A stretch of 64,000 nt of DNA from Limihaloglobus sulfuriphilus (GTDB lineage Bacteria; Planctomycetota; Phycisphaerae; Sedimentisphaerales; Sedimentisphaeraceae): contig NZ_CP019646.1 in assembly GCF_001999965.1 (NCBI RefSeq), positions 1,612,001 through 1,676,000 of the forward strand. Reading direction: 5' to 3'. Both the position numbers and the translations under genes were made by a program. Positions 3,043 through 20,605 of the stretch are shown in pieces; positions within the stretch are counted from its first letter, which is position 1; each line of letters begins with the position of its first letter. A model generated the notes under the pieces. That model saw only the letters and a program-made list of their open reading frames with translations, was not told the DNA's origin and searched no databases.

Positions 3043-4629
3043 TTCGCTTTTGCCTGTAAGATACTTCAGCGACTCAACTCTCATCAGTTTTACCAACACC
3101 CAGTACACACCCGCAGAGAAGGGTATCACAGCCAGCAGCCTTATAATATCGCCGGCAATACTCTCGGCAATAAAATCCATTTTCCCCATAACAGCGGTAC
3201 CGGCTATAAGCATTGCCAGCGACGCTATCAGAATCCTGGCGGCTTCCGGACCGGTATCCCTCCAGATTTTCTCACGGACAGGTTCCTCTAACAGGTGCAG
3301 TAAAAGCAGTGATTGAACGTAGGCGGCGACAGACGTTGCCAGAGCAAATGCCTGTATATTCATAAACCAGACAAGCGTTATGTTAAGCATAAAGTTCACC
3401 AAAACCGCCAGCACCGCGGTCATCGCGGGTATTTTTGAGTTGAATCTCGAATAGTGAACCCTGGTAACTATCTGCTGCCAGAAAAAACCGGGCAGACCAA
3501 CAGAATAAAACAGCAGAGTATTCATTGTATCGATCGTATCGGAGCGGCTGAACTTATCACCATGCTCAAAAAGAAGTGAGATTAGCGGTCTGGAAACAAT
3601 TATAAGACCAGCAGCCGCCGGCATTGCGATAAGAATCGACATTCGCAACCCCTTTGATAGAGTGTTGCGCAGCTGCTGCAAATCTCCCGCGGCGGAAGCC
3701 CTGCTGAAAACAGGAAACACAGCCGTCGCAAGCGAAATACCGATAACCCCCAGCGGCAGCTGATAAAGCCGCTGAGCATAATAAAGGTATGAAACTGACC
3801 CACGCCAGAGCGGGTAGGTAACCTCTCTGCCCCAAAAGACAAAGGCCGCCCCCTTTATCTCGGAGCCGGACAGCAGCCACGCCAGAACATCATCAAGAAG
3901 TGTATTTATCTGTGTAGCCGTCAGACCGATAACCATCGGAGCGAACATTATCATTATTCGCCGGAATTCAGGGGTTTTAAACTCAAAAAGAGGCCGTATT
4001 ACGACCCGTTCACGTTTGAGAAACGGGATTAACATAGCCAACTGGACAACGCCGCCGGCAAGAACACTGAATGCCGCGAAATAAACCAGTTTTTCTGCCG
4101 CCGCACCCCAGAAATACCCCGGGATTACTATTGCGGATATAATCGCGATATTAAGAATCACCGGTGCCGCCGCCGGAGCCGCGAAATGTCCATGAACGTT
4201 CAATATTCCGCTCATCAACGCGGCAGTGCATATCATGACGGCATAAGGCAGCATTATTGCCGTAAGTGAGAATATCAGCGAATTTTCATCGGTTACACCG
4301 AAAAATACGCTGTACCCGCCCATACTCACCCACGCTGCCAGGACAAGAAGGCTGACCGAACCGGCAATTGCCGTTATAACACTACAAGCAAGTTTACGGG
4401 CCTGCTGTTGCGATTTATGGAGTGCGCTGCTGTAAACAGGAATAAACGAAGCGCTGGCGGCACCTTCTCCAAAAATCCGCCTGGCAAGGTTTGGAATTTT
4501 GAACGCTATGTACCACGCGTCAGAAAAGGCGGTAGCTCCGAAAAAGTACGCATAGCACATGTCGCGTATCATCCCAAGTACGCGGCTGAACATCGTAAAC
4601 GAAGCTATCTGTCTAAAACCTTTTATCAT
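3037..4629 (-). CDS. murJ: MurJ/MviN lipid II flippase
   Basis: This is a multi-pass membrane protein of about 530 residues with roughly fourteen hydrophobic segments. The N terminus has the MurJ hallmark IASFTMFSRVLGMIRD, then SDAWYIAFKIPN and RRIFGEGAASASFIPVY. MurJ moves the peptidoglycan precursor lipid II across the cytoplasmic membrane. The frame stays open to 4671, but the ATG at 4629 (MIKGFRQIAS) matches the family start, so I chose it. The gene lies 3' of comF on the same strand, about 59 bp downstream, and its stop overlaps the photolyase stop. Its presence argues that the host makes peptidoglycan precursors. Confidence 0.92.
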   Translation of the reverse strand: MIKGFRQIASFTMFSRVLGMIRDMCYAYFFGATAFSDAWYIAFKIPNLARRIFGEGAASASFIPVYSSALHKSQQQARKLACSVITAIAGSVSLLVLAAWVSMGGYSVFFGVTDENSLIFSLTAIMLPYAVMICTAALMSGILNVHGHFAAPAAAPVILNIAIISAIVIPGYFWGAAAEKLVYFAAFSVLAGGVVQLAMLIPFLKRERVVIRPLFEFKTPEFRRIMIMFAPMVIGLTATQINTLLDDVLAWLLSGSEIKGAAFVFWGREVTYPLWRGSVSYLYYAQRLYQLPLGVIGISLATAVFPVFSRASAAGDLQQLRNTLSKGLRMSILIAMPAAAGLIIVSRPLISLLFEHGDKFSRSDTIDTMNTLLFYSVGLPGFFWQQIVTRVHYSRFNSKIPAMTAVLAVLVNFMLNITLVWFMNIQAFALATSVAAYVQSLLLLHLLEEPVREKIWRDTGPEAARILIASLAMLIAGTAVMGKMDFIAESIAGDIIRLLAVIPFSAGVYWVLVKLMRVESLKYLTGKSEL

Positions 4630-7732: not shown

Positions 7733-7806
7733 GGGGCCGTAGCTCAATTGGTTAGAGCATCGGACTGTCGATCCGAAGGCTGAGGGTTCGAGTCCCTTCG
7801 GCCTCG
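7733..7806 (+). tRNA. tRNA-Asp (anticodon GTC)
   Basis: The sequence folds as a standard cloverleaf of 74 nt. The acceptor stem GGGGCCG pairs with CGGCCTC (one G-U pair), and the discriminator base is G73. The D-arm contains AGCTCAATTGGTTAGAGC. The anticodon loop CTGTCGA sits between TCGGA and TCCGA and gives GTC. The T-arm is GAGGG-TTCGAGT-CCCTT. CCA is not encoded. The 3' end faces a tyrosine integrase gene 57 bp away, so this tRNA is the likely attachment site of the adjoining island. Confidence 0.95.
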
Positions 7807-7812
7807 CTTCTT

Positions 7813-7863: not shown

Positions 7864-9051
7864 TTAAAAATCACCTGCGTGCCAAGTGCGTGCCAAAATG
7901 TCACCGAAGCCTTCAGTGACCGCATCACGTGCCCGACCAACCAAATTATCTTCAACCGCCAGATAAAACTGTTGGGTTGTCTCAAATTTGGCATGGCCGG
8001 CAATAGTCATCAGATCATACTTACTCAGACCTCTGGCAAGCATCCTGCTCAAACCAGTTCTTCGTAAGTCGTGAAACTCGCCTTTGTCAATGCCCGCCAA
8101 CGTCAAGATTCTCTTGAACTGACGGGTGAAATTGTTGATCACCTTGATTCTTGCCGAACTTAATGTCCAGCTACCTCGCTTGCGGAGTTTTTGGATATGA
8201 TCATATCGCTGCGGAGGCAAAAACACATAAGGATAACCTACTGGGCGTTCAGCCTGGAGCTGGATCAGTAATCTAATTGCCAAATCTGTTAGGGGCAGAA
8301 TTCGACAATCAGTATCTTTTACGTGCCACTCCCAGGTTTCTTCAGTATCTCGCTTAGGGCTAACCTCAATAGTTTTTTTCTCAAAATCAATGTCACTCCA
8401 AACGGTATTTAACAATTCACTCTTTCGCATTGCAGTTACCAACGCAATAGTGATCAACAAATCCCATTGTAATACAGATTTTTTCTGAATTTTACGAGAA
8501 GATTCTAAGATGTTGCTACATTCATCAGTAGTGTATACCCTTACCTTTTTCTTAGGTACCTTAGGGGACTTCACGTATTTCAAAGGATTATCATCAAGCT
8601 GTCCTCTCTGGACTGCCAGTTGGAAAAACCGTCTGATTTGACGTAGCTTTTTCGCGGTAGTTGCAGGACTATTACCTTCATCAAGGCAATTCTGAAGAAA
8701 AACTTCACCATGCCTATGCGTAACATTTTGATAATCTATATTACCTACTGCATTTATAAAATCATTCATAGATGCCCTGTATTCTACCTGAGTGCTTTCT
8801 CTTATCTGGCTTCCTGTGCGTAAAAGGCTGTTTTCCAAGAACTTACTAAGCTTCATTGATTCAGGTTCAATAATACCCATCCTCAATTCCTGCTCTTTAT
8901 GCGTTCGTTGGCGTTCAGCCTTCCGCCGGTTGGAATGTCCTAATGAAATCCGATGTCGTTTGTTAAATTCATCAAGATAATCTAAATAATATGTAAAACT
9001 CTGGCCATCACGAGATGACCTTGTTCGTAAATTTACCAATTGTTTGCTCAT
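7864..9051 (-). CDS. int: Tyrosine recombinase / phage-type integrase of the island
   Basis: The 395-residue protein has the three-part layout of tRNA-targeting integrases. An N-terminal arm-binding region (to about 65) is followed by a SAM-like core-binding domain (about 70-160, VEYRASMNDFINAVGNI) and a C-terminal catalytic domain. Catalytic residues can be read: R209 (TAMRKSELL), a likely K245, H328-x-x-R331 (FHDLRRTG), H353 (AGHAKFETT) and the nucleophile Y363 (QQFYLAV). All are present, so the enzyme may be active. Its 3' end points at the tRNA-Asp 3' end, the usual arrangement at attL. It lies downstream of the excisionase-like gene. Confidence 0.92.
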   Translation of the reverse strand: MSKQLVNLRTRSSRDGQSFTYYLDYLDEFNKRHRISLGHSNRRKAERQRTHKEQELRMGIIEPESMKLSKFLENSLLRTGSQIRESTQVEYRASMNDFINAVGNIDYQNVTHRHGEVFLQNCLDEGNSPATTAKKLRQIRRFFQLAVQRGQLDDNPLKYVKSPKVPKKKVRVYTTDECSNILESSRKIQKKSVLQWDLLITIALVTAMRKSELLNTVWSDIDFEKKTIEVSPKRDTEETWEWHVKDTDCRILPLTDLAIRLLIQLQAERPVGYPYVFLPPQRYDHIQKLRKRGSWTLSSARIKVINNFTRQFKRILTLAGIDKGEFHDLRRTGLSRMLARGLSKYDLMTIAGHAKFETTQQFYLAVEDNLVGRARDAVTEGFGDILARTWHAGDF

Positions 9052-9134: not shown

Positions 9135-9383
9135 TTATTTTTTTGAAATTGTAATTTCTTCAATCCATTGCCTTATGGCGTTTACTGGATAAAGAGGTTG
9201 GCGACATATGTGGATATATGGCAAATCATGGACCCGCTTTAGGTGGGCTATTACATTATGATAATCCTCTGCTTTGCTAACCGCAGGAATACGGAGATAT
9301 TCGATTAGTTCTTGCTCAGTAAGTAGATCTGAACACACTGAACCATCCGGAGGTATGACATTATCGGTTTGTTCGTCTTTCAT
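9135..9383 (-). CDS. Excisionase-like small HTH protein
   Basis: A protein of 82 residues ends with a pattern typical of winged-HTH excisionases: LLTEQELIEYLRIP (first helix pair), then LKRVHDLPYIHICRQPLYPVNAIRQWIEE, which resembles 'LPyikiggr-xryrxxdvxxWl'. Such proteins bend DNA at att sites and favour excision by the neighbouring integrase. The start overlaps the end of the upstream membrane-protein gene by 23 bp, which suggests translational coupling within the island transcript. The assignment rests on the motif and position, so another HTH role is possible. Confidence 0.6.
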   Translation of the reverse strand: MKDEQTDNVIPPDGSVCSDLLTEQELIEYLRIPAVSKAEDYHNVIAHLKRVHDLPYIHICRQPLYPVNAIRQWIEEITISKK

Positions 9384-9777
9384 GATTTTCTCCAGTTAAA
9401 CGGATATCTTTTCTACTTGACATTAACGATCTCAGCTTGAGTTTTTCAGGGTATTCTCGGTCTACTTTTTTTAGTCTCCGACGCTCGCGCTGTTCAGGAT
9501 TAATGAAAAACCGTGGGGCAAGGGCCAGGAAGATACTTACAAGTATTAAAATACCAAGGGCAGTATATGACAGCAGGATAGTCTTTAGTACCGGCTCGTT
9601 TTTGGGTAAATCATTGATTTTTGAGGACATGCCGATAATCGCCAACATGGCAATAGCTGTTGACATCACGAGGGAAAATGCTCCGCCACGATGAAATACT
9701 GTTTCTACAGGCTTCTTTATCGCTGCTACCAAAACTATAAAAACAATGGTAAATACTACATATACAACAGGTTCCAT
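9361..9777 (-). CDS. Island membrane protein of unknown function
   Basis: The protein has about 138 residues from the ATG at 9777 (MEPVVYVV). This start lies just after AAAGGACC, unlike the longer frame to 9816. Three hydrophobic segments are visible: VVYVVFTIVFIVLVAA, FSLVMSTAIAMLAIIGM and ILLSYTALGILILVSIFLAL. A strongly basic cytosolic tail follows (QRERRRLKKVDREY and onward). I do not recognise the family. Position between the YggT-like and excisionase genes, with tight spacing on both sides, places it in the chaperone/vWA operon. The basic tail could contact a partner protein or nucleic acid, but that is only a guess. Confidence 0.65.
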   Translation of the reverse strand: MEPVVYVVFTIVFIVLVAAIKKPVETVFHRGGAFSLVMSTAIAMLAIIGMSSKINDLPKNEPVLKTILLSYTALGILILVSIFLALAPRFFINPEQRERRRLKKVDREYPEKLKLRSLMSSRKDIRLTGENHERRTNR

Positions 9778-9790
9778 TGTTAGGGTCCTT

Positions 9791-10078
9791 TCATTTGAGG
9801 TTAATAAATAGTCCAAACGTCATTCTGAGAGTTGCAGTCATCAACAAGGCTATAATGAGTTTTCCTTTTTCGGATAATGGCTTGCTTGTTTTGGTGAACC
9901 TTGGTAGCTGTGCTGTTACCATATCAACAATCGGTGTACCAGCGGTATCAAATGGTCTCAGCCACTGGATATTCCTCCAGGTAAAGAGCAGTCGTACCTG
10001 AAGGAAGAACATTATGATATCAAGACCAACGCATATAAAGTAGATAATACACATCAATAAATATACTAAAGCTGTCAT
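9791..10078 (-). CDS. YggT-like small membrane protein
   Basis: The protein of 95 residues has an N-terminal hydrophobic stretch (LVYLLMCIIYFICVGLDIIMFFLQVRLLF) and a second one near the C terminus (LIIALLMTATLRMTFGLF). Between them the segment WLRPFDTAGTPIVDMV resembles the 'P-x-DP-x-NPIV' loop of YggT-family proteins. That family is poorly understood and has been linked to membrane homeostasis and osmotic stress. The gene sits 10 bp downstream of the vWA gene and 13 bp upstream of the next membrane-protein start. The family match is tentative because of the short length. Confidence 0.55.
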   Translation of the reverse strand: MTALVYLLMCIIYFICVGLDIIMFFLQVRLLFTWRNIQWLRPFDTAGTPIVDMVTAQLPRFTKTSKPLSEKGKLIIALLMTATLRMTFGLFINLK

Positions 10079-10088
10079 GATTATCCTC

Positions 10089-10784
10089 CTATAAAGGCAT
10101 AATATGGGTTGCCAATGATTCGTATTTGCTGATCAGTTGATCCTGATCTCCTATGAAACAATACCTGACTGATCCATCGGGGTTTTGAGATGCAATCATT
10201 CGAAGCAGATTTTCGTCTACGTCTTTCGGGGCACCCCCGATACCGATACAATCGATGATAACGCCGATGTCTTTCAGCCGTTGGGCTACAGTCGCTGGAG
10301 AACCTCCACCGTTATGCTGGCCGTCTGTCAGCAGGATTATCCGTTTGTGATTATTATCCATTATTTTCTTAGGTTTCATCTCAAAGAACAATCCCGTCAG
10401 CATATCTGAAACGGGGTTTCCCGTTGGCTGGATCATTTTGTCGGCGAAGCATTTTTCAGCCAGATTAAGTGCTGCTACAAAATTTGTGCCGTCTGACTTG
10501 ACCCGTGTTTCCAGGGCTCTTATTAAGTTTTCATGTCCGCTTTTCAGGCATACCGGTGCATGCATCAATTTTGCGACATTACCAAACCCTATTATCCCAA
10601 CTCTGTCATCGGGGAATAATTTTAGTTTCTTTTTTATCAGCTCCGTATTGGCCGTTATAGCACCTGATAATCTTGTGGGTTTCCAGTCGTTAAAATCCAT
10701 TGAAGGTGAGAAGTCGATCGCGGTCAGCGTGGTTTCTCCCTTTGCCTCTGAATGAACTCTATTTGCAAATCCTGTGTAATTCAT
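10089..10784 (-). CDS. von Willebrand factor A (vWA) domain protein
   Basis: Nearly all 231 residues form one vWA domain. The metal-ion-dependent adhesion site is complete: D24-x-S26-x-S28 in AIDFSPSMD, T100 in SDGTNF and D154 in LLTDGQHN. Alternating strands and helices (RVGIIGFGNVAKLM, IIDCIGIGG) match the Rossmann-like fold. It has no signal peptide or membrane segment and therefore should act in the cytoplasm as a protein-binding module. Bacterial vWA proteins often pair with ATPases or chaperones. Here it follows the Hsp70 gene in the same direction with a 60-bp gap. That neighbour makes an Hsp70-vWA partnership the simplest reading, with the target unknown. Confidence 0.88.
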   Translation of the reverse strand: MNYTGFANRVHSEAKGETTLTAIDFSPSMDFNDWKPTRLSGAITANTELIKKKLKLFPDDRVGIIGFGNVAKLMHAPVCLKSGHENLIRALETRVKSDGTNFVAALNLAEKCFADKMIQPTGNPVSDMLTGLFFEMKPKKIMDNNHKRIILLTDGQHNGGGSPATVAQRLKDIGVIIDCIGIGGAPKDVDENLLRMIASQNPDGSVRYCFIGDQDQLISKYESLATHIMPL

Positions 10785-10844
10785 GTCAATATTCCTTTAA
10801 GAATTGGCAGGCAGCTATAACACTGCCTGCCTTTTGTTATTGTT

Positions 10845-12356
10845 TCAGGCCGCCTGCGAACCATCCTGGTTCTTGCCCGAATAATCGTAGGCAATCTCCA
10901 TCTCAGCAGTCTTGCCACTTGCGGTATCACGTGCCTTTGCCGTCAAAAGACCGTTGCTGTCCAATGAGAAGGTGACCTCGATCCTGCCTATCATATCCGG
11001 GCGGACTGGAAGGCCATTAAGGTCGAAATGGCCTATGCTCAGGCACCGGTCGGCGTTTTTGCCATCTTCGCCTTCCAGTATCTTGATTGTAACGGCAGTC
11101 TGATCAGGCTGGGCAAGCTTGAACAGCCGGGTCTGTATTGACGGTACTGGTGTTTTCTCTGGAAGTATCTCACTGCATACTTCATTGCCTTGCTCATCCA
11201 AAGCCATTACTCCAACCGAATAGCTCAGGATATCATGGAGGATCGTTACTGGTGCCGGCAATACGACTTCGCCGCATTTATATGATTTTCCCTGTCGGCT
11301 ATACTCAATCCGACCGGCAAGTACCGCACCCATAGCAGCTGCAACATGCGGTTCACACCTGCGTGAAACCTTTTTGCCGGTAACCTCCTCAAGCAGCTCT
11401 TTGATTATGGGCATCATGGAACCGCCGCCGACAGCGTACACTTCATCTATCTGAGACATATCCAGATTAGCACCTGCAATGACCTTTTCGGTTGTTACAA
11501 TGGTCTTTTTGGCAATATCGGTTACCCAGGAGTTAAACTGATCTCTTGATACGGACATATTCAACTGGTTACCCTCGCAAGAAAGAACAATCTGCGACTG
11601 TGTCTTTATAGAGAGACTGATCTTGAGTTGTTCTATCCTCTGAGTCATCTCCTGGAAAAATATAGGGTGTTTCTCTTTTGATGGTCTAAAGCTATTGGTA
11701 TTTTCAAACTCATCCAGAAGCTTCTCGCCAACCCGGTCATTAAAGTCTCTTCCGCCGACATTGGGGTCACCGCCGGTAGCGATAATCTCGCAGACGTTGC
11801 CGGTTGATCGAACGATAGAGACATCAAATGTTCCACCGCCAAGGTCAAAGACAAGTGCAGTACAGTTGTTTCTTTTATGGAGTTCATTACCCAGAGCCGC
11901 AGCGGTCGGCTCATGCGGTAACAGGATTGCCTTAATGCCAGCCTTAGCGGCGGCATCGATTGTCTGCTGTTTCTGAGCTTCTGTATAGTTGGCGGGGACG
12001 GTAATCACGGCCTCATTAACAACCTGGTCAGTCTTGATCTCTATGCTGTCCTTAGCATCAGCAAGCAGGATCGCCAGTATGTCCATTGCCCTGTAGGCGG
12101 TACCATCGTCAGATGAATGCAGCACTGCATCTGTACCCATACTCCTCTTCCAGTTGGTAACAAGCCGATCCGGTTCTGCAAAACCGGCGTTCAAGGCTTC
12201 TGTACCAACTATTGGCGGTCCCTCTGCCTGGAAGAACACGGCACTTGGTGTGAATGGCTCACCAAACCTGTTGGTGATTAACTGCGGAACACCGGTAACA
12301 CCTGGCTCTGCAAATTTGAACCGTGAGTTTCCTGCGTCAATACCTGGAATAATCAT
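10845..12356 (-). CDS. Divergent, lidless Hsp70 (DnaK-like) ATPase of the island
   Basis: This protein has 503 residues, against about 600-640 for housekeeping DnaK. The nucleotide-binding domain is recognisable. The phosphate-1 loop reads GIDAGNSRFKFA where DnaK has GIDLGTTNS. NEAVITVPANYTEAQ, HEPTAAALG, VFDLGGGTFDVS (about 170-181) and AVGGGSMMPIIKELL (about 310) are conserved. A beta-sandwich substrate domain follows (about 365-490, DILSYSVGVMALDEQGN and VTFSLDSNGLLTAKARD). The helical lid and the EEVD-like tail are absent. The ATG overlaps the stop of the GrpE-like gene by 4 bp (ATGA), so the two are probably translated together. The loss of the lid and the changed phosphate loop suggest a specialised role rather than general folding. 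Confidence 0.9.
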   Translation of the reverse strand: MIIPGIDAGNSRFKFAEPGVTGVPQLITNRFGEPFTPSAVFFQAEGPPIVGTEALNAGFAEPDRLVTNWKRSMGTDAVLHSSDDGTAYRAMDILAILLADAKDSIEIKTDQVVNEAVITVPANYTEAQKQQTIDAAAKAGIKAILLPHEPTAAALGNELHKRNNCTALVFDLGGGTFDVSIVRSTGNVCEIIATGGDPNVGGRDFNDRVGEKLLDEFENTNSFRPSKEKHPIFFQEMTQRIEQLKISLSIKTQSQIVLSCEGNQLNMSVSRDQFNSWVTDIAKKTIVTTEKVIAGANLDMSQIDEVYAVGGGSMMPIIKELLEEVTGKKVSRRCEPHVAAAMGAVLAGRIEYSRQGKSYKCGEVVLPAPVTILHDILSYSVGVMALDEQGNEVCSEILPEKTPVPSIQTRLFKLAQPDQTAVTIKILEGEDGKNADRCLSIGHFDLNGLPVRPDMIGRIEVTFSLDSNGLLTAKARDTASGKTAEMEIAYDYSGKNQDGSQAA

Positions 12357-13018
12357 TTTTGATTCCTTTCGATAGAGGTTATATTAGTTTCTGATGCCTG
12401 GTACTCGAAAAGTGAAATAGTTTCAAGCCTCAGCATCCTTTGGCTGCCCATACTGAATCCCACCTGAAGGGATTGAGCAACACATTTATCAAGTTCTTTA
12501 TTTGTTGTTGGTATTTTTTCGATTGGCTTCATCAGCTTCGCGTCGAATTTATCGTCTGTTTGATGCCTGATGATATCAACATCGTAAACAGACAGAAACT
12601 GCAGCATCTGACTCCAGAGAGCATCTAAAAAGTCATCTGCTTTGCAATCTGCATCTGCCCGGTGTCTGCGAGTATCTTCTACAAGATCAAACACGGGGAA
12701 CAATGACCTGACAATCGGCTGGATCACACTTTGATCATAATGTTCTTTTGACAGGATGCGGGTTGTTTCGACAGTGCTTTCAAGGAGTTTTCCGATTGAT
12801 GAAATATCTTCCAACTCCTTTCTAATGCCTTGAGCATCATAGATGCTTTGCTGCTGTTTTGTGTCAACCTGACTCAGCTGATTAGATAGCTGCACGACAT
12901 TATCTGACATCGTATGCAGGTTATTCTTCACAGATTCGTCGATAAAAAGCCCAAGATTTTGAAACAATCTTGCTGCCATAGAGGCACTCTGCTCTAAGAT
13001 GTTTTTCTTTTCTTCCAT
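12353..13018 (-). CDS. GrpE-like nucleotide exchange factor partner
   Basis: The protein has 221 residues. The first half is predicted to be largely helical and coiled (VVQLSNQLSQVDTKQQQSIY, GIRKELEDISSIGKLLEST). This is followed by VRSLFPVFDLVED, which resembles the GrpE segment 'LLPVLDNLERA'. The C-terminal part reads like the GrpE beta domain: DDKFDAKLMKPIEKIPT, then VAQSLQVGFSMGSQRMLR, comparable to 'G-x-x-FDP-x-x-HEA...V-x-x-GY-x-x-x-x-R-x-LRPA'. GrpE releases ADP from Hsp70. The similarity is weak, but the four-base overlap with the Hsp70 gene makes the assignment convincing. No J-domain protein is seen nearby. Confidence 0.72.
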   Translation of the reverse strand: MEEKKNILEQSASMAARLFQNLGLFIDESVKNNLHTMSDNVVQLSNQLSQVDTKQQQSIYDAQGIRKELEDISSIGKLLESTVETTRILSKEHYDQSVIQPIVRSLFPVFDLVEDTRRHRADADCKADDFLDALWSQMLQFLSVYDVDIIRHQTDDKFDAKLMKPIEKIPTTNKELDKCVAQSLQVGFSMGSQRMLRLETISLFEYQASETNITSIERNQK

Positions 13019-13127
13019 AATTGTCCTTCCTAAAATTATTATTCATTATTGATTAGTCAGTTGCTTGAGCAACTACATCTGTCTATACCCCTACACTCCA
13101 CTCAAAAAGGGTTGTGTATGGGAAAAA

Positions 13128-13337
13128 TTATTTTTTTGTAATAATCTTTACCACTGCAACGATTGTGACACATATAAGCCCAAGAAACATAAGACCATAC
13201 ACCGGATCTTCAAGGTAGTAAGGAAGTCTTATATTCAGGGAGATATCATCCACGTTTCTGGCCAACTTGACGCCAAGTGTGACCAGAAATATAAGAATTG
13301 CTGCTGTCAGAATATTTGCCCATTTGATTTTCATCAT
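13128..13337 (-). CDS. Small two-helix membrane protein
   Basis: The 69-residue protein has two hydrophobic helices, WANILTAAILIFLVTLGVKL and VYGLMFLGLICVTIVAVVKI. They are joined by a polar loop of about 20 residues and end in a basic tail. There is no recognisable family. It lies between the nuclease-like gene and the GrpE-like gene on the same strand, 66 bp from the former. Two adjacent ATGs (13337 and 13334) could serve as the start. It probably belongs to the island operon and may anchor cytosolic partners, but the role is unknown. Confidence 0.6.
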   Translation of the reverse strand: MMKIKWANILTAAILIFLVTLGVKLARNVDDISLNIRLPYYLEDPVYGLMFLGLICVTIVAVVKIITKK

Positions 13338-13369
13338 TCCGTTCCTTATTAACGTTTATTTATTGTTTA

Positions 13370-13397
13370 TTATTTATCCATTAGCCGGGATAAATAA
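13370..13397. repeat. Perfect 10-bp inverted repeat between two island genes
   Basis: TTATTTATCC (13370-13379) pairs with GGATAAATAA (13388-13397) around an eight-base loop. It lies between the nuclease-like stop and the small membrane-protein start. No U-tract follows on the minus strand, so it may be a processing site, an attenuator-like hairpin or an operator rather than a terminator. Confidence 0.45.
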
Positions 13398-13403
13398 CGA
13401 TAT

Positions 13404-13817
13404 TTAATTCATAAGTTCTTTATTTAGATGGTTTAGTAACAATATACAAATCTGCTCTCCGCCGGGTCTAAGGCCAGAACATCTGAGTCTTGCCTTGACC
13501 TCTTTCTGAACCTTCTTGCTGGGTACAACAATAATCAAGGGGATGCCTAATCGCTCGGCTTTGGCAGCGTTGGTCAAGACATATCTTGGCGTGGTTTCAA
13601 TCTCCACAAATATCATAGCCTCGCCCCGTCGGGCCAGAATATCCACAAAATCCAACCTGCCGTCAGGGAGTTTTTCCGGATGTTCCAGCCTGGTTTCAAA
13701 GCCGGCCCTGTTGAGAAGACTTTCCGTCTGAAGGGCAAGATGGGTATGGAGTTTGCCACCCCTTAGAAAGAAAGCTATTACAGCCACTATTGACAGTGCA
13801 AAGATAGCATAATTCAT
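13404..13817 (-). CDS. Membrane-anchored restriction-endonuclease-like protein
   Basis: The 137-residue protein starts with one membrane helix (YAIFALSIVAVIAFFLRGG) followed by a small alpha/beta domain. The core reads RLDFVDILARRG-x-x-MIFVEIETTP and then AERLGIPLIIVVPSKKV. The Asp, the E-x-E on the next strand and the following strand/helix resemble the PD-(D/E)xK nuclease fold. The canonical E-x-K is E-I-E here, so catalysis is uncertain. The start overlaps the stop of the HerA-like ATPase gene by 4 bp, a coupling commonly seen between ATPases and their nuclease partners. It may also be a catalytically inactive member of the fold. Confidence 0.55.
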   Translation of the reverse strand: MNYAIFALSIVAVIAFFLRGGKLHTHLALQTESLLNRAGFETRLEHPEKLPDGRLDFVDILARRGEAMIFVEIETTPRYVLTNAAKAERLGIPLIIVVPSKKVQKEVKARLRCSGLRPGGEQICILLLNHLNKELMN

Positions 13818-14934
13818 GATTGTTCTCCGTATTTTTCTATAGCTTGAATTCCTTCCGGGAGGGCTTCGAGCAAAATAGTACTCCTGCCTCGGCCTCCGGT
13901 TTCGAGGACGTTCTCTTTTATATACTTCATATCGATTAGTTTTTTTCGGACATCACGAGCCTTATTGGGGCTTATGCCCGCTATTTTGGGGTACTCACTT
14001 GAAGGCTTCATTGGAGTGTCAACGACAGCTTTACAGAATAAATATTCCTGCTTACTCTCAAATACTCTGGGGATGGTAACCCTGCGGCTGGTCAGGGCGA
14101 TTTTGGGGGATGAAGGCCAGTCTGCGAATTCCTTAGCTGGAATAACTTTAAGTTCTGGAAATGGGTTGGCCCGATCTGTATCGACCCCAGTATTACGGTT
14201 AAGGTTCATTTTGGGGATGCTGAATACGAATGGATGCCTCCACTGACCCTCTCCAAGCTGACCAATAAACGTACCAGGATTGAGATTGTGCTGGGCCCAG
14301 TGAATCATCTCACTGCTTAGGCCCATACTGGAACCTGCGGAACTGTAATCAGTAAAGCTTCCGCATCTGCCCATAATTTTAGTTGACGTATTGCTTATGA
14401 CTTGGGGGAGCAGACTGGACGTACTCTGCAGACTCAGGTCAACCCCTATACCCGTCCCTCGAACGAGACCAATCAGATCAGCGATTGCCGAAGAATTACA
14501 GCATAATTTCTGTGCCTCATCTATATATATTAACAGGTCCATCTTTGGGTTGGAGATCCCTCTTGCAACCCTTGAAATGAATTCAGAAAGTATCAATGTA
14601 TTAAGAATGAGATTCTTATCCACCTCCGAACAACCTGCAAGTTCGAATGCTATATGATAACCTGCGAGGTCAGTTGACCTCCAGCCGTACCTGTAACCCA
14701 ATACGTCTGGCTCAAGCGAGCGCAAAATCGGTTCGAGGTTATCAACAATCGCAATTCTGGCCTGATGGTTCAAATCTTTATCAGCTTTTACAGACTCAAA
14801 CAGATCAAAAAGTGTTGGGTATTGGTTTTGGGTTCCATCATAAATACGAAACAGTTCATATAACTTCACTTGTAGTAACTTGCTTGCTCTAGGAGGCAAA
14901 TCCAAGGTCTCAACCAAAGTGTCGCAGATACGAG
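13814..14934 (-). pseudogene. HerA/TraD-like P-loop ATPase, 5' end lost to IS21
   Basis: About 370 residues of the C-terminal part remain. A Walker B motif (MDLLIYIDEAQKL), a sensor-like QSTSSLLP segment and HerA/FtsK-type arginine-rich strands (KIMGRCGSFTDY) are visible. The C-terminal region (from about residue 295) reads as a winged helix (SPNKARDVRKKLIDMKYI). The Walker A motif is missing: the frame runs back into the IS21 terminus at 14935 and meets a stop there. Family members are normally much longer, so roughly the first half is gone. A TTG at 14917 could start a stub, but that product could not bind ATP normally. The stop overlaps the nuclease-like start by 4 bp. HerA-type ATPases are hexameric pumps or translocases acting on DNA. 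Confidence 0.75.
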
Positions 14935-14966
14935 TGTCAATCGGCGCTTTAAATTAGGTCACTATG
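14933..14966. repeat. 34-bp terminal sequence, repeated inverted at 58390-58423
   Basis: This stretch covers the IS21 end plus two flanking bases. Its reverse complement occurs without a mismatch at 58390-58423. The two copies point toward each other and bound about 43.5 kb. Confidence 0.9.
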
Positions 14967-15185
14967 AGCGCGTTCAAAATGGGTCAGTTAAACCAGTTGT
15001 TATTTACTATTTTTACTCTCATTTGTCAAGTTGGATTTGGATAAAACGATTATTTTCGACGTTATTGGGCAGATACGCCAGGCCTGTTTCGCCCGGACCG
15101 GCGGCCGGGTGAGAATGGGCCACCCAAAAAGCTCGTCGGAACCTGGCCGCCGCAAGCCGGGCGGGACAGGCCGGTTAAGACTGAG

Positions 15186-15953
15186 TCAGCCCTCATGGCC
15201 GGCTCTTTTCTCACAGGCACCATGCTCGGCACGGTCCTTGAGTCGGTAGCTGCGGCCTGTGATGTTGATGATCTCAGCATGATGCAAAAACCTGTCCAGG
15301 ATTGCGGTTGCCGATGGTACATCGCCAATTAGCTTGCCCCAGTCTTCCAGCGGCCTGTTGGAGGTCATCATCGTGGATTTGTTTTCATGTCGCCGCATAA
15401 TGATCTCCAGCAGATACTCGCCGCAGCGTTTTGGCAGATGCTTGATGCCCATGTCATCGATTATCAGCAGCTCCGGCTTGAGATATCTGTTCATTACCTT
15501 ATCCTGACAGGCAAAGGCATCTTCGTGCAGAAAATCCCTGGCAACATCAAATATCGAGCGGTACCGCACAGCCATGCCTGCCTTGACTGCCTGATAGCCT
15601 ATCGCCTGACACAAATGACTCTTGCCCACACCCGGAGGGCCAAGCAGCAGAACATCAACGCCCTCACTGATAAAGCGGCATGTGGCCATATCAAATATCC
15701 GGCTTCTTTTAATCGAAGTATTGAACTGCCAGTCAAACTCCTCCAGTGTCTTGAGTTCTCTAAACCCGGCAGCCTTAATACCCCTTTGGATCTGGCGATG
15801 CTTTCTGACCAGCATCTCATCCTGCAGGATCAGTTCTAAAAACTCAGCATGAGTGAGGCTGTTGCCGGCTGCCTCCTGCAATCGAACTTCAAGTGTCTCA
15901 AGCATACCTGACAACCTTAGTGATTTTAATGTGTTATGCAGTGAATTGTTCAT
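15186..15953 (-). CDS. istB: IS21-family helper ATPase IstB
   Basis: A protein of 255 residues with an N-terminal helical region (LKSLRLSGMLETLEVRLQEA) and a AAA+ ATPase domain related to DnaC. Walker A is GPPGVGKS at about 105-112 and Walker B is LLIIDD near 165. MTSNRPLEDWGK (sensor 1 region) and DRFLHHAEIINITGRSYRLKD at the C terminus are typical of IstB. IstB assembles on DNA and brings the IstA transposase to its target. It follows istA with a 34-bp gap on the same strand and looks intact, although its partner gene is disrupted. Confidence 0.95.
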   Translation of the reverse strand: MNNSLHNTLKSLRLSGMLETLEVRLQEAAGNSLTHAEFLELILQDEMLVRKHRQIQRGIKAAGFRELKTLEEFDWQFNTSIKRSRIFDMATCRFISEGVDVLLLGPPGVGKSHLCQAIGYQAVKAGMAVRYRSIFDVARDFLHEDAFACQDKVMNRYLKPELLIIDDMGIKHLPKRCGEYLLEIIMRRHENKSTMMTSNRPLEDWGKLIGDVPSATAILDRFLHHAEIINITGRSYRLKDRAEHGACEKRAGHEG

Positions 15954-15987
15954 AATAATCTGCTCCTGAATAAGTTATGATTATTGT

Positions 15988-17442
15988 TCAGCCCAGAACC
16001 TCTCTTACGAATTCTCCGTAACTGGAGATATCTCTGATAATAGGGTGCTCATCTATAAATTCCATCTGGAGCTGCCTGTCACCGCCGTGTTTAATAATAC
16101 TCCTGATGGTCTTCAATCGAAAAGCATTGTGGCTTAACGCTATTTTACATGCATTATCGATTTTGTTACCGTTATAGGTATTGGTCATATTCAGCAAGCC
16201 CAGAAGTACGCGGATACCAGGTATTCCTCTGGCCTCAAGCATCTGCCGGGCCCATCTCTGGGCATTCTCACCTATCAGACTGACTCGTTCAAGCATCCAT
16301 ACAACGCCGTTTTCTATCTTTGTTCTTTTCTCTGAATGAATATGTCCGTCCTGAGTCTGGAATCTGCCCGGCTCAACTTTAGCGTGAACAACAATCTGCT
16401 CCATGCTGCGGTTAAATACTCTTACCATATGGCCGTCCCATCTTGCCCATACCTTGCGGCCGGTATATTCCGGAGGCACCGAGTAATAGGTCCTCTCTAC
16501 CTCTATATGGCCGTCCCTGTGAACGGACCGCTGAGCTTCTGTAAATGAAGGAAACCTTCCAACCGGAAGCCTCAATAAAGCAGGCTTTTCCTGTTCTGTG
16601 AACAATTTGCCTACCTGCTTGCGGGTAGTGCCGTGAATACGGGTATCGGCAATACGGCTCTCCCAGCTGAGAAGAAACTGATTCTGCTCTGAGAGGCTCT
16701 TAAAGCTGCGGCCCTTGAGGGCGTTATTTTTGACATATGCTACTGCTTTTTCAACCTTACCCTTGTGTCTTGGGGTATACGGCTTACAGGGTAAAATGGC
16801 GGTACCGTAATGACGGCAGAATGACACTATTTTTGGGTGTATCTCAGGATCATACCAGTCAGCTTTGTTTACAGCAGCTTTAAGATTATCTATTATCAGT
16901 GTTTGCGGAACACCGCCAAAGTGGTGAAAAGCGTTTTCCAGGCAATTTATAAAGTTATCGCCGGTCTGCCTGAAAACTGCCTCGCTGTAGGATTTACGGG
17001 AGAAGCTAAGCACTACCCGTATTACATGAGTTCTTTTTCGTCTGCCATCTTTCGTTATTACCGGTGCACCCGTACCAAAATCTATCTGAGCCTCTTCACC
17101 GGGCCTGCATTCAAGACGCCTGAACGGAACAGGCGAATTTTTACTGAGGCGGTTGACAAACCTGCGAACGCTGTGGTAGCTGACATCAGAGCCGTGGTCG
17201 TCACGAAGATCCTGCCATATACGCCGGCGGCTGAGCCCCATATCCAGCTTGTTCTTAATTATTTCACGGTAAGGCTCACAATTGCTTACCGGACCGGTTG
17301 AGCTTTGGGCCACCGACCCGGGAGGCGCGTTAGTGACCTGTTTTGAATTATCATTGTCTGATTTTGCATACTTACGCACCGTATCCAGGTGGATGCCAAG
17401 CTCTCTGGATATACGCCTGCAAGACCAGTTACGCTCTCTTAA
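15988..17442 (-). pseudogene. istA: IS21-family transposase IstA, main part (interrupted)
   Basis: About 485 residues remain of a DDE transposase. The N-terminal HTH is visible (CRRISRELGIHLDTVRKYAKS). The catalytic core has D in QIDFGTGAP, D in LIIDNLKAAV and E in HKGKVEKAVAYV. The C-terminal region ends DISSYGEFVREVLG. Codons 1-9 and part of codon 10 lie 2 kb away at 19428-19458, separated by the IS1634-like element. Joining the two parts at the duplicated TTAA gives an uninterrupted frame of about 493 codons starting MTKRSVIQTLRERN. A TTG inside the inserted element could give a nearly full protein, but normal expression should be lost. Confidence 0.85.
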
Positions 17443-19427
17443 CCCCAATTTCTCACTTAGGTCTCGAAACCGGTAAAAATAAAAATATTTTCGATGTTTC
17501 TGGCCTTTGAGGGGTGTTTCGATTCTGGATTTGGCTTTGGTACAGACCTGCCCTATTGCATAGGTGAATTTCTATGCGATAATTTGGGTATGTATTTGAA
17601 AAAGCACAGGCGTAAAAAGAACGGTAAATGCAACACCTATTACAGTATTGCTGAGAAGCGGAAGGTCTCCGGTAATCGGCATGTGGAGAAGGTGGTTCTT
17701 TACCTTGGTGAGATCAGCGACTCTCAAAAGAAGGCCTGGCAGAGATCAATTGAGATAATCAACGAAGATAACAAACCTGTACACAAAACCCTTTTTGCTT
17801 TTGATCAGGACAACCAGAGCTGTCACGATGTTGATACGATACCGGTTAACATCTCAAAGATGAGACTGGAACGACCGCGTAGGTTTGGCGATTGCTGGCT
17901 GGCTTCTGAGATGTGGGATCAGCTTGGTTTTGACCGCTTCTGGTCAGAGCGGATTGATACAGACAGATCGCCGGTCGCATTCTCAAAAGTCCTCAAGTTG
18001 CTTACGGTGAGCAGGCTGATAAAACCTTCTGCCGAATACTTTGTCCATCAGCACTGGTTCAGCCAGAGTGCTATGGACGCCATCCTTGATTGTGATTTTG
18101 AGATTGCCGAGAAAAACAGGCTCTACCGTTGTCTTGACCGTATCCTTCCATACAAAGACGAACTTTGCAAATACCTTAAAGACACCTGGCAAGGAATGTT
18201 CAACCTTGAGTACGACATCCTGCTCTATGATATCACCAGCACGTATTTCGAGGGGCTATGCAAGCAGAATCCCAAGGCAGAATTCGGCCACAGCAAAGAC
18301 AGACGCAGTGATTGCAGACAGGTGCTGATAGCCCTTGTTGTTACGCCGGAGGGCTTTCCTCTTGACTATGAAGTACTTCAGGGAAATACATCTGAAAAGA
18401 CGACATTAAGACCCCTGCTCAACAAGATAGAAACAATGTACGGCAAGGCCAACAGGGTCTGGCTGATGGACAGGGGCATACCAACGGAAGCTACGCTCAA
18501 GTTCATGCGTAAGAACAATATAAGCTATCTTGTTGGCACACCCCGCAGACAGCTCGATGATTATAGCAGTGAACTTTCTCAAAAGGACTGGGAGCAGGTA
18601 AACAGCAGTGTTCATGTGAAATACATCGAAAAAGAGGGCGAATGCTATGTCCTTGCCAGGAGCAGGGATCGTATGCAAAAGGAGAGGGCCATGCGTAAAA
18701 GAAAACTGCGTAAATATCTTGACGGACTTGAAAAACTCAAGGGATATCGCAATTATGAACGTTTTTATAAACGCCTTGGGGCTTTGCAATCGCAGGCCGG
18801 TAAAGCTTATAGATGTGTGGAGCTCAATATTCCGGGGCAAAAGGAGCGGATTGAAGCCGGCGAATTCAGGTATCACATAAACCGGCAGAAATACCGTGAT
18901 ATGATCTATCGTGACGGCAAGTACTTTTTGCGGACCAATCAGAAGGGCAAGGATGGTAAGGCACTCTGGAATGAGTATATGCTGCAGTGCAACGTTGAGC
19001 AGTCTTTCAGAGAACTCAAGAGTGATCTTGGCATTCGCCCTGTATATCACCATAAAGAAGAGCGTGTTGATGCCCATATCTTTGTGGCGTTTATAAGTTA
19101 TTGCCTGCAGGTGACATTGCGGCATAAGCTGCGGGTGAGTGCCTGCGGCCTGACCGCACAGGCTGCCCTGGAAACGATGAGCCGTATCCAGATGCTTGAT
19201 GTGACATTTGAAACACTTGACGGTCGGTACCTCTTGATGGAGAGGTACACCGAGCCCGAGGCAGATCAGCGTCTGATACTGCACCACCTGAACATGGATC
19301 TGCCGCTGCAGAAGCCACCCAAAATATACAGCAGCCAGGTCAAAGATTAAGACCCCCTTTGGCGACACACCAACACCGCGGGCGCTACCATAAACCCTGT
19401 TTTACACCCCTAAGTGAGAAATTGGGG
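17443..19427 (+). mobile_element. IS1634-like insertion sequence inside istA
   Basis: The element is 1985 bp long and is bounded by perfect 19-bp inverted repeats that start CCCCAATTTCTCACTTAGG (17443-17461 and 19409-19427). TTAA occurs immediately outside both ends (17439-17442 and 19428-19431) and acts as a 4-bp target duplication, since removing one copy restores the istA frame. It contains one intact transposase gene. The intact structure suggests that it is younger than the IS21 copy. Confidence 0.9.
17590..19350 (+). CDS. IS1634/IS4-group DDE transposase
   Basis: This transposase has about 586 residues from the ATG at 17590 (MYLKKHRRKKNGK). The frame is open to 17494, but the upstream residues do not resemble the family. 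DDE residues can be placed: D in LLYDITSTYFEG, D in VWLMDRGIPTEA and E in CNVEQSFRELKSDL. The intervening segment GHSKDRRSDCRQVLIALVV is typical of IS1634 transposases. A zinc-free N-terminal part and a long insertion between the second D and the E are also as expected. No stop or frameshift is present, so the enzyme may be active. Terminal repeats lie 147 bp upstream and 59 bp downstream. Confidence 0.93.
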   Translation: MYLKKHRRKKNGKCNTYYSIAEKRKVSGNRHVEKVVLYLGEISDSQKKAWQRSIEIINEDNKPVHKTLFAFDQDNQSCHDVDTIPVNISKMRLERPRRFGDCWLASEMWDQLGFDRFWSERIDTDRSPVAFSKVLKLLTVSRLIKPSAEYFVHQHWFSQSAMDAILDCDFEIAEKNRLYRCLDRILPYKDELCKYLKDTWQGMFNLEYDILLYDITSTYFEGLCKQNPKAEFGHSKDRRSDCRQVLIALVVTPEGFPLDYEVLQGNTSEKTTLRPLLNKIETMYGKANRVWLMDRGIPTEATLKFMRKNNISYLVGTPRRQLDDYSSELSQKDWEQVNSSVHVKYIEKEGECYVLARSRDRMQKERAMRKRKLRKYLDGLEKLKGYRNYERFYKRLGALQSQAGKAYRCVELNIPGQKERIEAGEFRYHINRQKYRDMIYRDGKYFLRTNQKGKDGKALWNEYMLQCNVEQSFRELKSDLGIRPVYHHKEERVDAHIFVAFISYCLQVTLRHKLRVSACGLTAQAALETMSRIQMLDVTFETLDGRYLLMERYTEPEADQRLILHHLNMDLPLQKPPKIYSSQVKD

Positions 19428-19458: not shown

Positions 19459-19597
19459 TTTTAGATAGTTCGCCATAAAGACCTCCGTTATATTTTCGAT
19501 AATATCGATAATATAACGACTCTAAGGCAAAAACTTCCTTTCAAAATGACCTATTTTGACCCGCTCATTACTGACCTGTTTTCAGCGCCGCTTAACA

Positions 19598-20605
19598 CCC
19601 ACCATTTCACGAACTCGTATTCGAATATCTTTAACCTTTTGGGGACTGATTGCAGGATTAAAACCAACAAAACAGTTTCCCCTGCGGTCAATCGTTTGAC
19701 GGCCTCGAAATTCAAATCCCAGAAAGTTAAATTTGGTATTATGATACACTTTCCGGCGTCGTCTATCTTTGCAATAGACGATTTGAGTTTTGTCTGGGTG
19801 AAGTTCCAATCTGCAGGCATTAAAACGTTCTCGAAGATTTGCCAGAAGATTCTCTGCCTGCTGCTCAGTCACACAATGGCAAACTATATCATCTGCATAA
19901 CGTTCAAATCGGATATCAGGCCAATGCCTGACCATCCAGACATCAAACGCATAATGCAGAAACAGGTTTGCCAGTAGTGGGCTTATGACACCTCCCTGAG
20001 GAGTCCCACATGAACTCTGTTCAAGAGTGCCATCAGCTTGCATTACCGGTGCTTTAAGCCAGCGTTGGATATAAATTAAATGCCAGCGACAATCAGTATG
20101 TTTACGCACCGCTTTCATTAACAACTCATGGCTGATTGAATCAAAGAATCCTTTGATATCCAGATCAAGTACCCAATCCTGCTGCCAACAATTTATACGG
20201 GCTGCGCCAACAGCTTCAAGAGCTGACTTATTGGGACGATACCCATAAGACCAACTGTGAAATATTGGTTCCAGTTTTGGCTCAAGTTCCAATTTAACCA
20301 CCATCTGGGCTATTCTATCACCCACCGTTGGAATACCTAACGGTCGGGTGCTACCACTTGTTTTTAGGGATATTTACCCTTCGCACTGGTGGTGGAAAAT
20401 AACTGCCTGATGACAATCGGTTCCAGAGCTTATAGAGGTTGCCTTTGAGATTCTTTTCAAATTCTTCCAAAGACACTCCATCTACTCCGCAACTGCCACG
20501 GTTCGCTTTGACATACTGGTATGCTTTCCACACCGTATTCTTAGAAATAACAAAAGATTTTGGTCTTGTCTTATTCACATTGTTCCTCCCATTGCTGGTT
20601 GACAA
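19598..20605 (-). pseudogene. Group II intron reverse transcriptase, frameshifted and truncated
   Basis: Two frames together form one RT. The first frame (20351-20605) encodes the RT0/RT1 region, AYQYVKANRGSCGVDGVSLE to VRRVNIPKNKW and a stop. The second frame resumes with GSTRPLGIPTVGDRIAQ, giving the RT2 to RT7 blocks: SYGYRPNKSA, DLDIKGFFDSI, GTPQGGVISPLLANLFL and the active-site YADD in ERYADDIVCH. A frameshift near 20360 explains the break. At the other end the protein stops after REMVGVKRR inside the IS21 terminus, before the maturase X domain. The RT is therefore dead twice over. It belongs to the bacterial intron-encoded protein group and would have helped intron splicing and retrohoming. 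Confidence 0.88.

What the first reader, a model, noticed from the sequence alone, without database searches (positions are those of the whole stretch)
9361..14934. A mobile Hsp70-GrpE-vWA-membrane-nuclease-HerA gene set, possibly an undescribed system
Eight minus-strand genes lie between the excisionase-like gene and the IS21 border: a HerA-like ATPase, a membrane-anchored nuclease-like protein, a two-helix membrane protein, a GrpE-like protein, a lidless Hsp70, a vWA protein with complete MIDAS, a YggT-like protein and a three-helix membrane protein. The ATPase/nuclease and GrpE/Hsp70 pairs each overlap by 4 bp. ATPase plus nuclease and vWA plus ATPase pairings are known in bacterial conflict systems, but I know of no named system with this composition. 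A reading that fits is an NTP-driven complex at the membrane in which Hsp70/GrpE controls a vWA or ATPase-nuclease effector. The defence role is inference.
Basis: partly seen in the sequence, partly recalled or inferred. Interest (0 to 1): 0.85.

Follow-up and report, generated by a model that had tools for sequence, protein, structure and literature searches.

The report
Truncated chaperone-controlled DNA-pump island module
The eight genes are the tail of a conserved but apparently unnamed gene module that sits next to integrases at tRNA genes in dozens of planctomycete genomes; it pairs a DNA-pumping motor and a nuclease with a chaperone-like switch, and may move, process or defend DNA, although the copy here has been cut open by an insertion sequence and is probably dead.

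Summary
In detail: eight minus-strand ORFs between the xis-like gene and an IS21 border, with both 4-bp overlaps. The set is not local. Neighbourhoods of related vWA genes give 56 loci, nearly all Planctomycetota. An Hsp70 of one clade lies beside the vWA in 47, a tyrosine recombinase within 10 kb in 43, and a tRNA next to the recombinase in 26, with ten tRNA types (control: recombinase in 1 of 55 loci). Complete copies read c29-Znf-HerA-nuclease-TM2-GrpE-Hsp70-vWA-TM-TM3-xis-int. The window copy has lost the 5' part, including the HerA Walker A, to IS21, so it is a remnant. HerA folds like DndH/VirB4/HerA motors and the small protein like a PD-(D/E)XK nuclease. In other loci the same chaperone triad sits with a VirD4-type coupling protein and TrwC relaxase, with TraG-like ATPases, or with caspases. 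GrpE, Hsp70, vWA and the small membrane proteins tend to be co-inherited, while integrases are swapped. My best reading is an NTP-switched DNA-translocation module of integrative elements, most likely for element DNA transfer. Defence remains a serious rival; neither function is shown. No library or paper searched names this set.

The parts
7733..7807 (+). tRNA-Asp(GTC), putative integration target; the integrase gene ends 57 bp downstream of its 3' end
   Evidence: ARAGORN; in relatives the recombinase also lies next to a tRNA
7864..9051 (-). tyrosine recombinase (integrase)
   Evidence: Pfam Phage_integrase 9.3e-18
9135..9383 (-). excisionase-like small protein, same cluster (c6) as in relatives
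   Evidence: cluster c6, (E 1.5e-38)
9361..9816 (-). TM3: fast-evolving protein with three predicted membrane segments (true start probably 9777)
   Evidence: (E 6.5e-33); dN/dS 0.31-0.62 between near copies
   Evidence: (E 3.1e-36)
10089..10784 (-). vWA protein with complete MIDAS
   Evidence: Pfam VWA_2 7.9e-14; alignments A3, A6
10845..12356 (-). lidless Hsp70 (ATPase domain plus SBD-beta), member of a clade separate from DnaK
   Evidence: Pfam HSP70 6.9e-88; residues; tree
12353..13018 (-). divergent GrpE-like nucleotide-exchange factor
   Evidence: Pfam GrpE 1.9e-8
13128..13337 (-). TM2: two-helix membrane protein conserved at this position
   Evidence: (E 7.6e-21)
13404..13817 (-). PD-(D/E)XK-fold nuclease-like protein; invariant H, D, E, E, K; N-terminal hydrophobic stretch only in this copy
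   Evidence: alignment A5; AF2 model; fold matches
13814..14917 (-). C-terminal remnant of a HerA/FtsK-type ATPase (Walker B, wHTH-like C-terminus; Walker A lost); the frame stays homologous to about 14934
14935..17448 (-). IS21-type insertion that truncates herA (istB 15186-15953, istA 15988-17448); outer end not mapped
   Evidence: Pfam IstB_IS21 9.5e-66; sequence at the border
17494..19350 (+). second IS (DDE transposase), part of the IS pile that replaced the 5' part of the module
   Evidence: Pfam DDE_Tnp_1 4e-15
19582..20325 (-). reverse-transcriptase fragment in the same IS pile
   Evidence: Pfam RVT_1 2.7e-36

Best explanation
The finding is the IS21-truncated 3' part of a conserved operon that forms the core module of a family of integrative elements sitting next to tRNA genes in Planctomycetota. 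The module has two functional halves. One is a DNA pump of the FtsK/HerA/TraG superfamily: here a HerA-type ATPase with a C-terminal winged-helix-like end and a PD-(D/E)XK nuclease, fused or as a neighbouring gene. The other is an NTP-driven switch: a lidless Hsp70, its GrpE exchange factor and a metal-binding vWA adaptor, flanked by small, fast-changing membrane proteins. Most likely mechanism: the Hsp70/GrpE cycle, working through the vWA protein, assembles or releases the pump-nuclease complex at the inner membrane, and the pump then processes or translocates the element's own DNA during transfer; xis/int excise and re-integrate the element. Shown: gene content, order, monophyly, linkage to recombinase and tRNA, folds, conserved catalytic residues, purifying selection, exchange of integrases. 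Inferred: assembly at the membrane, the switch role, and that the substrate is the element's own DNA in transfer. The window copy itself is a probably non-functional remnant.
For: Linkage: 43 of 56 loci have a tyrosine recombinase within 10 kb and 26 have a tRNA next to it (ten tRNA types); 1 of 55 control loci has a recombinase. Gene order is conserved down to 59-70 aa membrane proteins at 30-60% protein identity. Several copies occur in one genome (e.g. G420, G389, G362, G441). HerA model: DndH Z 33, VirB4 Z 30, HerA Z 27, TrwB Z 25; weak NCBIfam similarity to VirB4, TraD and CedD models. Nuclease model pLDDT 90 with PD-(D/E)XK matches. The triad is one clade (46 Hsp70s, support 1.0) and is co-inherited (Hsp70-vWA rho 0.89, GrpE-Hsp70 0.74). 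In G605 the triad lies with a VirD4-type coupling protein (Pfam T4SS-DNA_transf, over cut-off), ArdC and, 7 kb away, a TrwC relaxase (8.1e-73), then int and tRNA-Met. In L247 it lies with a membrane-anchored ATPase with weak TraG-D_C similarity; L235, L238 and L246 carry the same arrangement, by reading of the sequence, with Replic_Relax-like proteins below cut-off. An AEP-type primase is present in four elements (L016, L046, L082, L091).
Against: No relaxase near the HerA-type modules: PF03432 in 0 of 8 genomes, TrwC near the module only in G605; no T4SS channel genes were recognised. Integrase phylogeny is uncorrelated with the triad (rho 0.05) and HerA only weakly (0.18), so the module is not tied to one integrase or one pump. 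No flanking att repeat was found within 35-50 kb, so element borders are unknown. Islands carry other defence loci (CRISPR-Cas I-C, Hma-like), and HerA plus nuclease is also a defence pairing. Most HerA homologues have no membrane anchor, unlike actinomycete TraB.
Confidence: 0.48

Rival explanations
1. A mobile anti-invader (defence) system: the HerA-nuclease captures and cuts foreign DNA, or triggers cell damage together with the small membrane proteins. The Hsp70-GrpE-vWA triad is an NTP-driven threshold that keeps the effector off until infection, and the sigma/anti-sigma/membrane-protease genes upstream in some copies are the sensor. It is carried on tRNA islands with other defence systems.
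For: HerA top structural match is DndH C-domain, followed among others by HerA-Sir2 and HerA-DUF4297 defence complexes. PD-(D/E)XK partner. Triad next to two caspase-fold proteins in a Pontiellaceae isolate (L122; Peptidase_C14 over cut-off). Adjacent CRISPR-Cas I-C in G278 and Hma-like helicase/methylase in G369. Small membrane proteins evolve fast, dN/dS up to 0.9 against 0.04-0.18 for Hsp70, HerA and vWA. Published precedents: 'HerA/FtsK capture systems' (PMC10853773) and GrpE/Hsp70 in GTPase-centred conflict systems (PMC7159879).
Against: PADLOC gives only a weak mad8/HerA similarity. In relatives the pump is a VirD4-type coupling protein with relaxase and ArdC, or TraG-like. Near-constant placement beside int/xis is more typical of backbone than of exchangeable cargo. 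Neighbouring defence loci would be expected as cargo under either view.
Confidence: 0.33
2. Element maintenance rather than transfer or defence: the pump, nuclease and AEP primase (where present) replicate, resolve or partition the excised element, and Hsp70/GrpE remodels a replication protein as DnaK/GrpE do for some plasmids.
For: AEP-type primase in four elements and a RuvB-like protein in G278. HerA/FtsK ATPases also segregate DNA (established knowledge).
Against: No initiator or partition gene is conserved in the core; the AEP primase is absent from most HerA-type copies.
Confidence: 0.12
3. A chance cluster of unrelated genes piled up beside an integrase by IS activity.
For: The window region does hold an IS pile.
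Against: Same order in dozens of genomes with correlated divergence.
Confidence: 0.01

Closest known systems
HerA/FtsK capture systems and the xis/Y-recombinase mobile operons related to DndH clade 1 (PMC10853773)
   Same: HerA/FtsK translocase with nuclease, winged helix, Xis-type HTH and tyrosine recombinase; DndH C-domain is the best structural match
   Different: Those described have a D5/SF3 helicase or Orc/Cdc6 partner; that paper mentions no Hsp70, GrpE or vWA
ICETh1 transjugation module of Thermus (TdtA FtsK-family translocase, NurA-like nuclease, PMC7767461)
   Same: Integrative element with an FtsK/HerA-type pump and a nuclease used for DNA donation
   Different: TdtA is a membrane protein with a restriction-methylation partner; no chaperone-vWA triad is described there
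Actinomycete ICEs (AICEs) with TraB (own knowledge)
   Same: tRNA integration, xis/int, one FtsK/HerA-type pump, small membrane proteins; prim-pol in some
   Different: TraB is membrane-anchored; the HerA here mostly is not, and a nuclease and Hsp70/GrpE/vWA are added
NTP-dependent conflict systems: MoxR-vWA ternary systems and GAP1-N2 GTPase systems with HSP70/GrpE (PMC7159879)
   Same: NTPase chaperone plus vWA logic; GrpE and an HSP70 lacking a domain occur in some
   Different: No MoxR, no GAP1-N2 GTPase and no variable effector array were recognised here
TerY-P triad (vWA, PP2C, Ser/Thr kinase with zinc ribbon; as described in PMC11090510)
   Same: In L230 a PP2C, Ser/Thr kinase and zinc-ribbon vWA take the place of the chaperone triad beside HerA and int
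   Different: Absent from the window; the window has Hsp70-GrpE instead of kinase and phosphatase

Membership tests
HerA/FtsK-superfamily DNA translocase (HerA gene) | Translocase ATPase fold | tested here: met
   Model of the L106 homologue: DndH Z 33.2, VirB4 30.2, HerA 27.2
HerA/FtsK-superfamily DNA translocase (HerA gene) | Walker A and Walker B present | tested here: not met
   Both present in full-length homologues; Walker A missing from the window copy
PD-(D/E)XK nuclease | Fold and acidic/lysine catalytic set | tested here: met
   pLDDT 90 model, many PD-(D/E)XK matches; H7, D41, E54, E56, K68 invariant in 10 sequences; activity not tested
DnaK-type Hsp70 chaperone | ATPase catalytic residues and SBD-beta | tested here: met
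   Equivalents of D8, K70, E171, D194, T199, D201 kept relative to the genome's own DnaK
DnaK-type Hsp70 chaperone | C-terminal alpha-helical lid | tested here: not met
   Protein ends after SBD-beta; separate clade from DnaK
Integrative element | Tyrosine recombinase and xis next to a tRNA | tested here: met
Integrative element | Direct att repeats at both ends | tested here: inconclusive
   None found within the window or 35-50 kb of relatives
ICE / mobilisable element | Relaxase and coupling protein with the module | tested here: inconclusive
   Present in G605 (TrwC, VirD4-type); not found near the HerA-type modules tested
HerA/FtsK capture defence system | HerA/FtsK plus active endoDNase | tested here: inconclusive
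   Genes and residues present in relatives; nuclease activity not tested
HerA/FtsK capture defence system | Restricts invaders | not testable with these tools
   Needs phage or plasmid challenge
MADS defence system | Full mad gene set | tested here: not met
   Only weak mad8 similarity of HerA; no other module protein tested matched a mad model
TerY-P triad | vWA + PP2C + STK-zinc ribbon | tested here: not met
   No PP2C or kinase in the window set; such a triad in the variant locus L230
YggT family | Match to the YggT model | tested here: not met
   No Pfam hit at E 0.1

The most novel reading that the evidence does not exclude
A categorically new kind of DNA-transfer machine: integrative elements whose DNA pump (HerA, VirD4-like or TraG-like, interchangeable) is assembled and gated by a dedicated lidless Hsp70-GrpE-vWA switch, with a kinase-phosphatase-vWA switch as its alternative form.
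Probability: 0.27. Interest if true: 0.88.

Novelty: new variant of a known kind. Interest (0 to 1): 0.7.

Why it matters
How planctomycete genomes exchange DNA is little described in the literature searched here, and this is a recurrent module tied to integrases at ten kinds of tRNA gene. It would give Hsp70/GrpE a role as a dedicated switch for a DNA motor, and it shows two interchangeable vWA-based switches (chaperone or kinase/phosphatase) on interchangeable FtsK/HerA/TraG-family pumps. Whether such pumps serve transfer or defence becomes testable with complete copies (L103, L106, L113).

Tried and rejected
No vWA or GrpE relative was found in IMG/VR or PLSDB plasmids, so the module is not evidently viral or plasmid-borne. 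Most weak vWA hits (Sulfuricurvum, Sulfurimonas, Chloroflexi, Hydrogenedentes etc.; L128-L182) are unrelated vWA proteins without the module and served as the control. GrpE-only hits (L017-L024) are Hsp70-GrpE pairs of another clade. Direct BLASTP of the window HerA or nuclease against the G278 fusion was not significant. Similarity between the nuclease and the Replic_Relax-like proteins was not significant (hhalign probability 0.6%). Att repeats were not found; repeats in L075 and L240 lie on the other side of their tRNA. A suspected stop inside dusB of related genomes is just the normal end of the gene.
Full report
What is in the window. Next to tRNA-Asp (7733-7807, +) lies, on the minus strand, an integrase (7864-9051), a small xis-like gene (9135-9383) and then the eight genes of the finding. 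Pfam supports Hsp70, vWA and GrpE clearly. The two 4-bp overlaps are exact. The set ends at position 14934-14935, where an IS21-type element begins, followed by a DDE transposase, a reverse-transcriptase fragment and then glycoside-hydrolase genes.

The window copy is broken. Aligned with full-length homologues (545-662 aa), the window HerA starts at about residue 160 of the L106 protein, so the P-loop (Walker A) region is missing; the only other HerA-profile matches in the 3.87-Mb genome are weak and lie elsewhere. The genes upstream in complete copies (zinc-finger protein, c29, and in some sigma-like, anti-sigma and M48/prenyltransferase-toroid proteins) are absent. The N-terminal hydrophobic stretch of the nuclease is found only here, because homologues start at M-R-G where the window has a CTA codon; 'membrane-anchored nuclease' is therefore doubtful.

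The set recurs. A vWA profile found strong relatives in the same order, and in other families of the same class. Named records are Planctomycetota MAGs (Phycisphaerae, Sedimentisphaerales, a Blastopirellula MAG) and Pontiellaceae isolates; a few MAG labels (Kuenenia, Actinomycetota) may be binning errors. Complete copies L103, L106 and L113 read sigma-like, anti-sigma (zf-HC2), M48/M56-like membrane protease with prenyltransferase toroid, c29, Znf, HerA, nuclease, TM2, GrpE, Hsp70, vWA, small TM protein, TM3, xis, int; xis was not detected by the profile in L113. L104 and L109 have HerA and nuclease fused and a different upstream set. L127 holds the same genes in another order. Over 56 loci, Hsp70 is adjacent in 47, GrpE in 35, HerA near in 33, a tyrosine recombinase within 10 kb in 43 and a tRNA beside it in 26 (five each Asp, Ser, Met; three Arg; two Pro, Thr; one Phe, Leu, Glu, Val); many contigs simply end too early. 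Of 55 unrelated-vWA control loci, one has a recombinase. The control comes from other genomes, so it is a rough yardstick.

Parts. The HerA model (L106, pLDDT 84) matches DndH C-domain (Z 33.2, rmsd 2.8, 335 residues), VirB4 (30.2), HerA (27.2) and TrwB (24.9), so the fold does not decide between transfer and defence. The nuclease model (pLDDT 90) matches many PD-(D/E)XK proteins (AF1548 Z 10.8, Can2 9.7 and others) and keeps H7, D41, E54, E56, K68. Hsp70 keeps the catalytic residues and SBD-beta and lacks the lid. In a tree of 53 sequences the 46 module Hsp70s form one clade (support 1.0) apart from DnaK and from other planctomycete Hsp70-GrpE pairs.

Evolution. Between near copies dN/dS is 0.04-0.18 for Hsp70, HerA and vWA but 0.28-0.91 for the two small membrane proteins. 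Pairwise identities of Hsp70 and vWA correlate (rho 0.89), GrpE and the small membrane protein with Hsp70 at 0.74, TM3 at 0.59, while the integrase does not correlate (0.05) and HerA hardly does (0.18). Within one genome, L080 and L081 share Hsp70 and vWA at 99-100% but their integrases are about 21-25% identical; L083 and L084 share the vWA end but have HerA at 26-28%. So the triad with its membrane proteins is the constant unit, and pump and integrase are exchanged. These values use few loci and are not corrected for phylogeny.

Variants that bear on function. In G605 the triad stands with a VirD4-type coupling protein, ArdC, a TrwC relaxase about 7 kb away, an ABC-3C-like cassette, an integrase and tRNA-Met. 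In L235, L238, L246 and L247 it is followed by a membrane-anchored ATPase read as TraG-like (weak Pfam support in L247 only) and winged-helix proteins with sub-threshold Replic_Relax similarity. In L122 it follows two caspase-fold proteins. In L230 (and, by profile, L097 and L232) a Ser/Thr kinase with zinc-ribbon vWA stands where the chaperones are, again beside HerA and int; in L230 a PP2C is present too. Two long contigs show other defence loci beside the module: CRISPR-Cas I-C in G278 (cas3 by PADLOC; the remaining cas genes by reading) and an Hma-like helicase/methylase in G369, both followed by a ThiF-JAB pair.

Interpretation. What stays constant is a vWA-containing NTP switch, usually with an FtsK/HerA/TraG-superfamily pump, beside an integrase and often a tRNA. 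That is best explained as a core module of integrative elements that handles their DNA, most likely for transfer. Defence is the main rival: HerA plus nuclease is a known defence pairing, caspases and CRISPR-Cas are neighbours in some loci, and the membrane proteins evolve fast. No relaxase was found near the HerA-type modules and no att repeats were found, which keeps confidence moderate.

Literature and libraries. PADLOC, NCBIfam and PHROGs give no named match. In the open-access papers searched, HerA/FtsK capture systems (PMC10853773), GrpE/HSP70 in GTPase conflict systems (PMC7159879), TerY-P in CoCoNuTs (PMC11090510), BREX-related HerA systems (PMC12839542) and ICETh1 (PMC7767461) are the nearest; none describes this set. 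Subscription papers are not covered, so an existing description cannot be excluded.

Noticed in passing
L106:1815-4589: 924-aa membrane protein with Peptidase_M48/M56-like and prenyltransferase alpha-alpha toroid domains, between a zf-HC2 anti-sigma and the module; an unusual architecture.
   Followed up: partly
L046:6500-7369, L089:7389-8180, L090:10569-11402, L091:9079-9717: Protein c8 after the vWA gene: N-terminus looks like a degenerate J domain, then a membrane segment and a PEGA-like end; a possible Hsp70 partner. Read by eye only.
   Followed up: no
L122:4223-10717: Two caspase-fold proteins directly upstream of GrpE-Hsp70-vWA in Pontiellaceae bacterium B12227 (isolate); an ArdC-like gene lies at 2530-3414 by reading.
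   Followed up: partly
L230:3631-12471: HerA with PP2C, FHA-zinc ribbon, Ser/Thr kinase and zinc-ribbon vWA in place of the chaperone triad, next to an integrase and tRNA-Pro.
   Followed up: partly
L183:804-17583; L048:14888-16323: Hma-like helicase/methylase with DUF499-like ATPase and HerA in one island, CRISPR-Cas I-C in another, both followed by a ThiF-JAB pair.
   Followed up: partly
window 19582-20325: Reverse-transcriptase fragment (RVT_1 2.7e-36) between a DDE transposase and glycoside-hydrolase genes.
   Followed up: no
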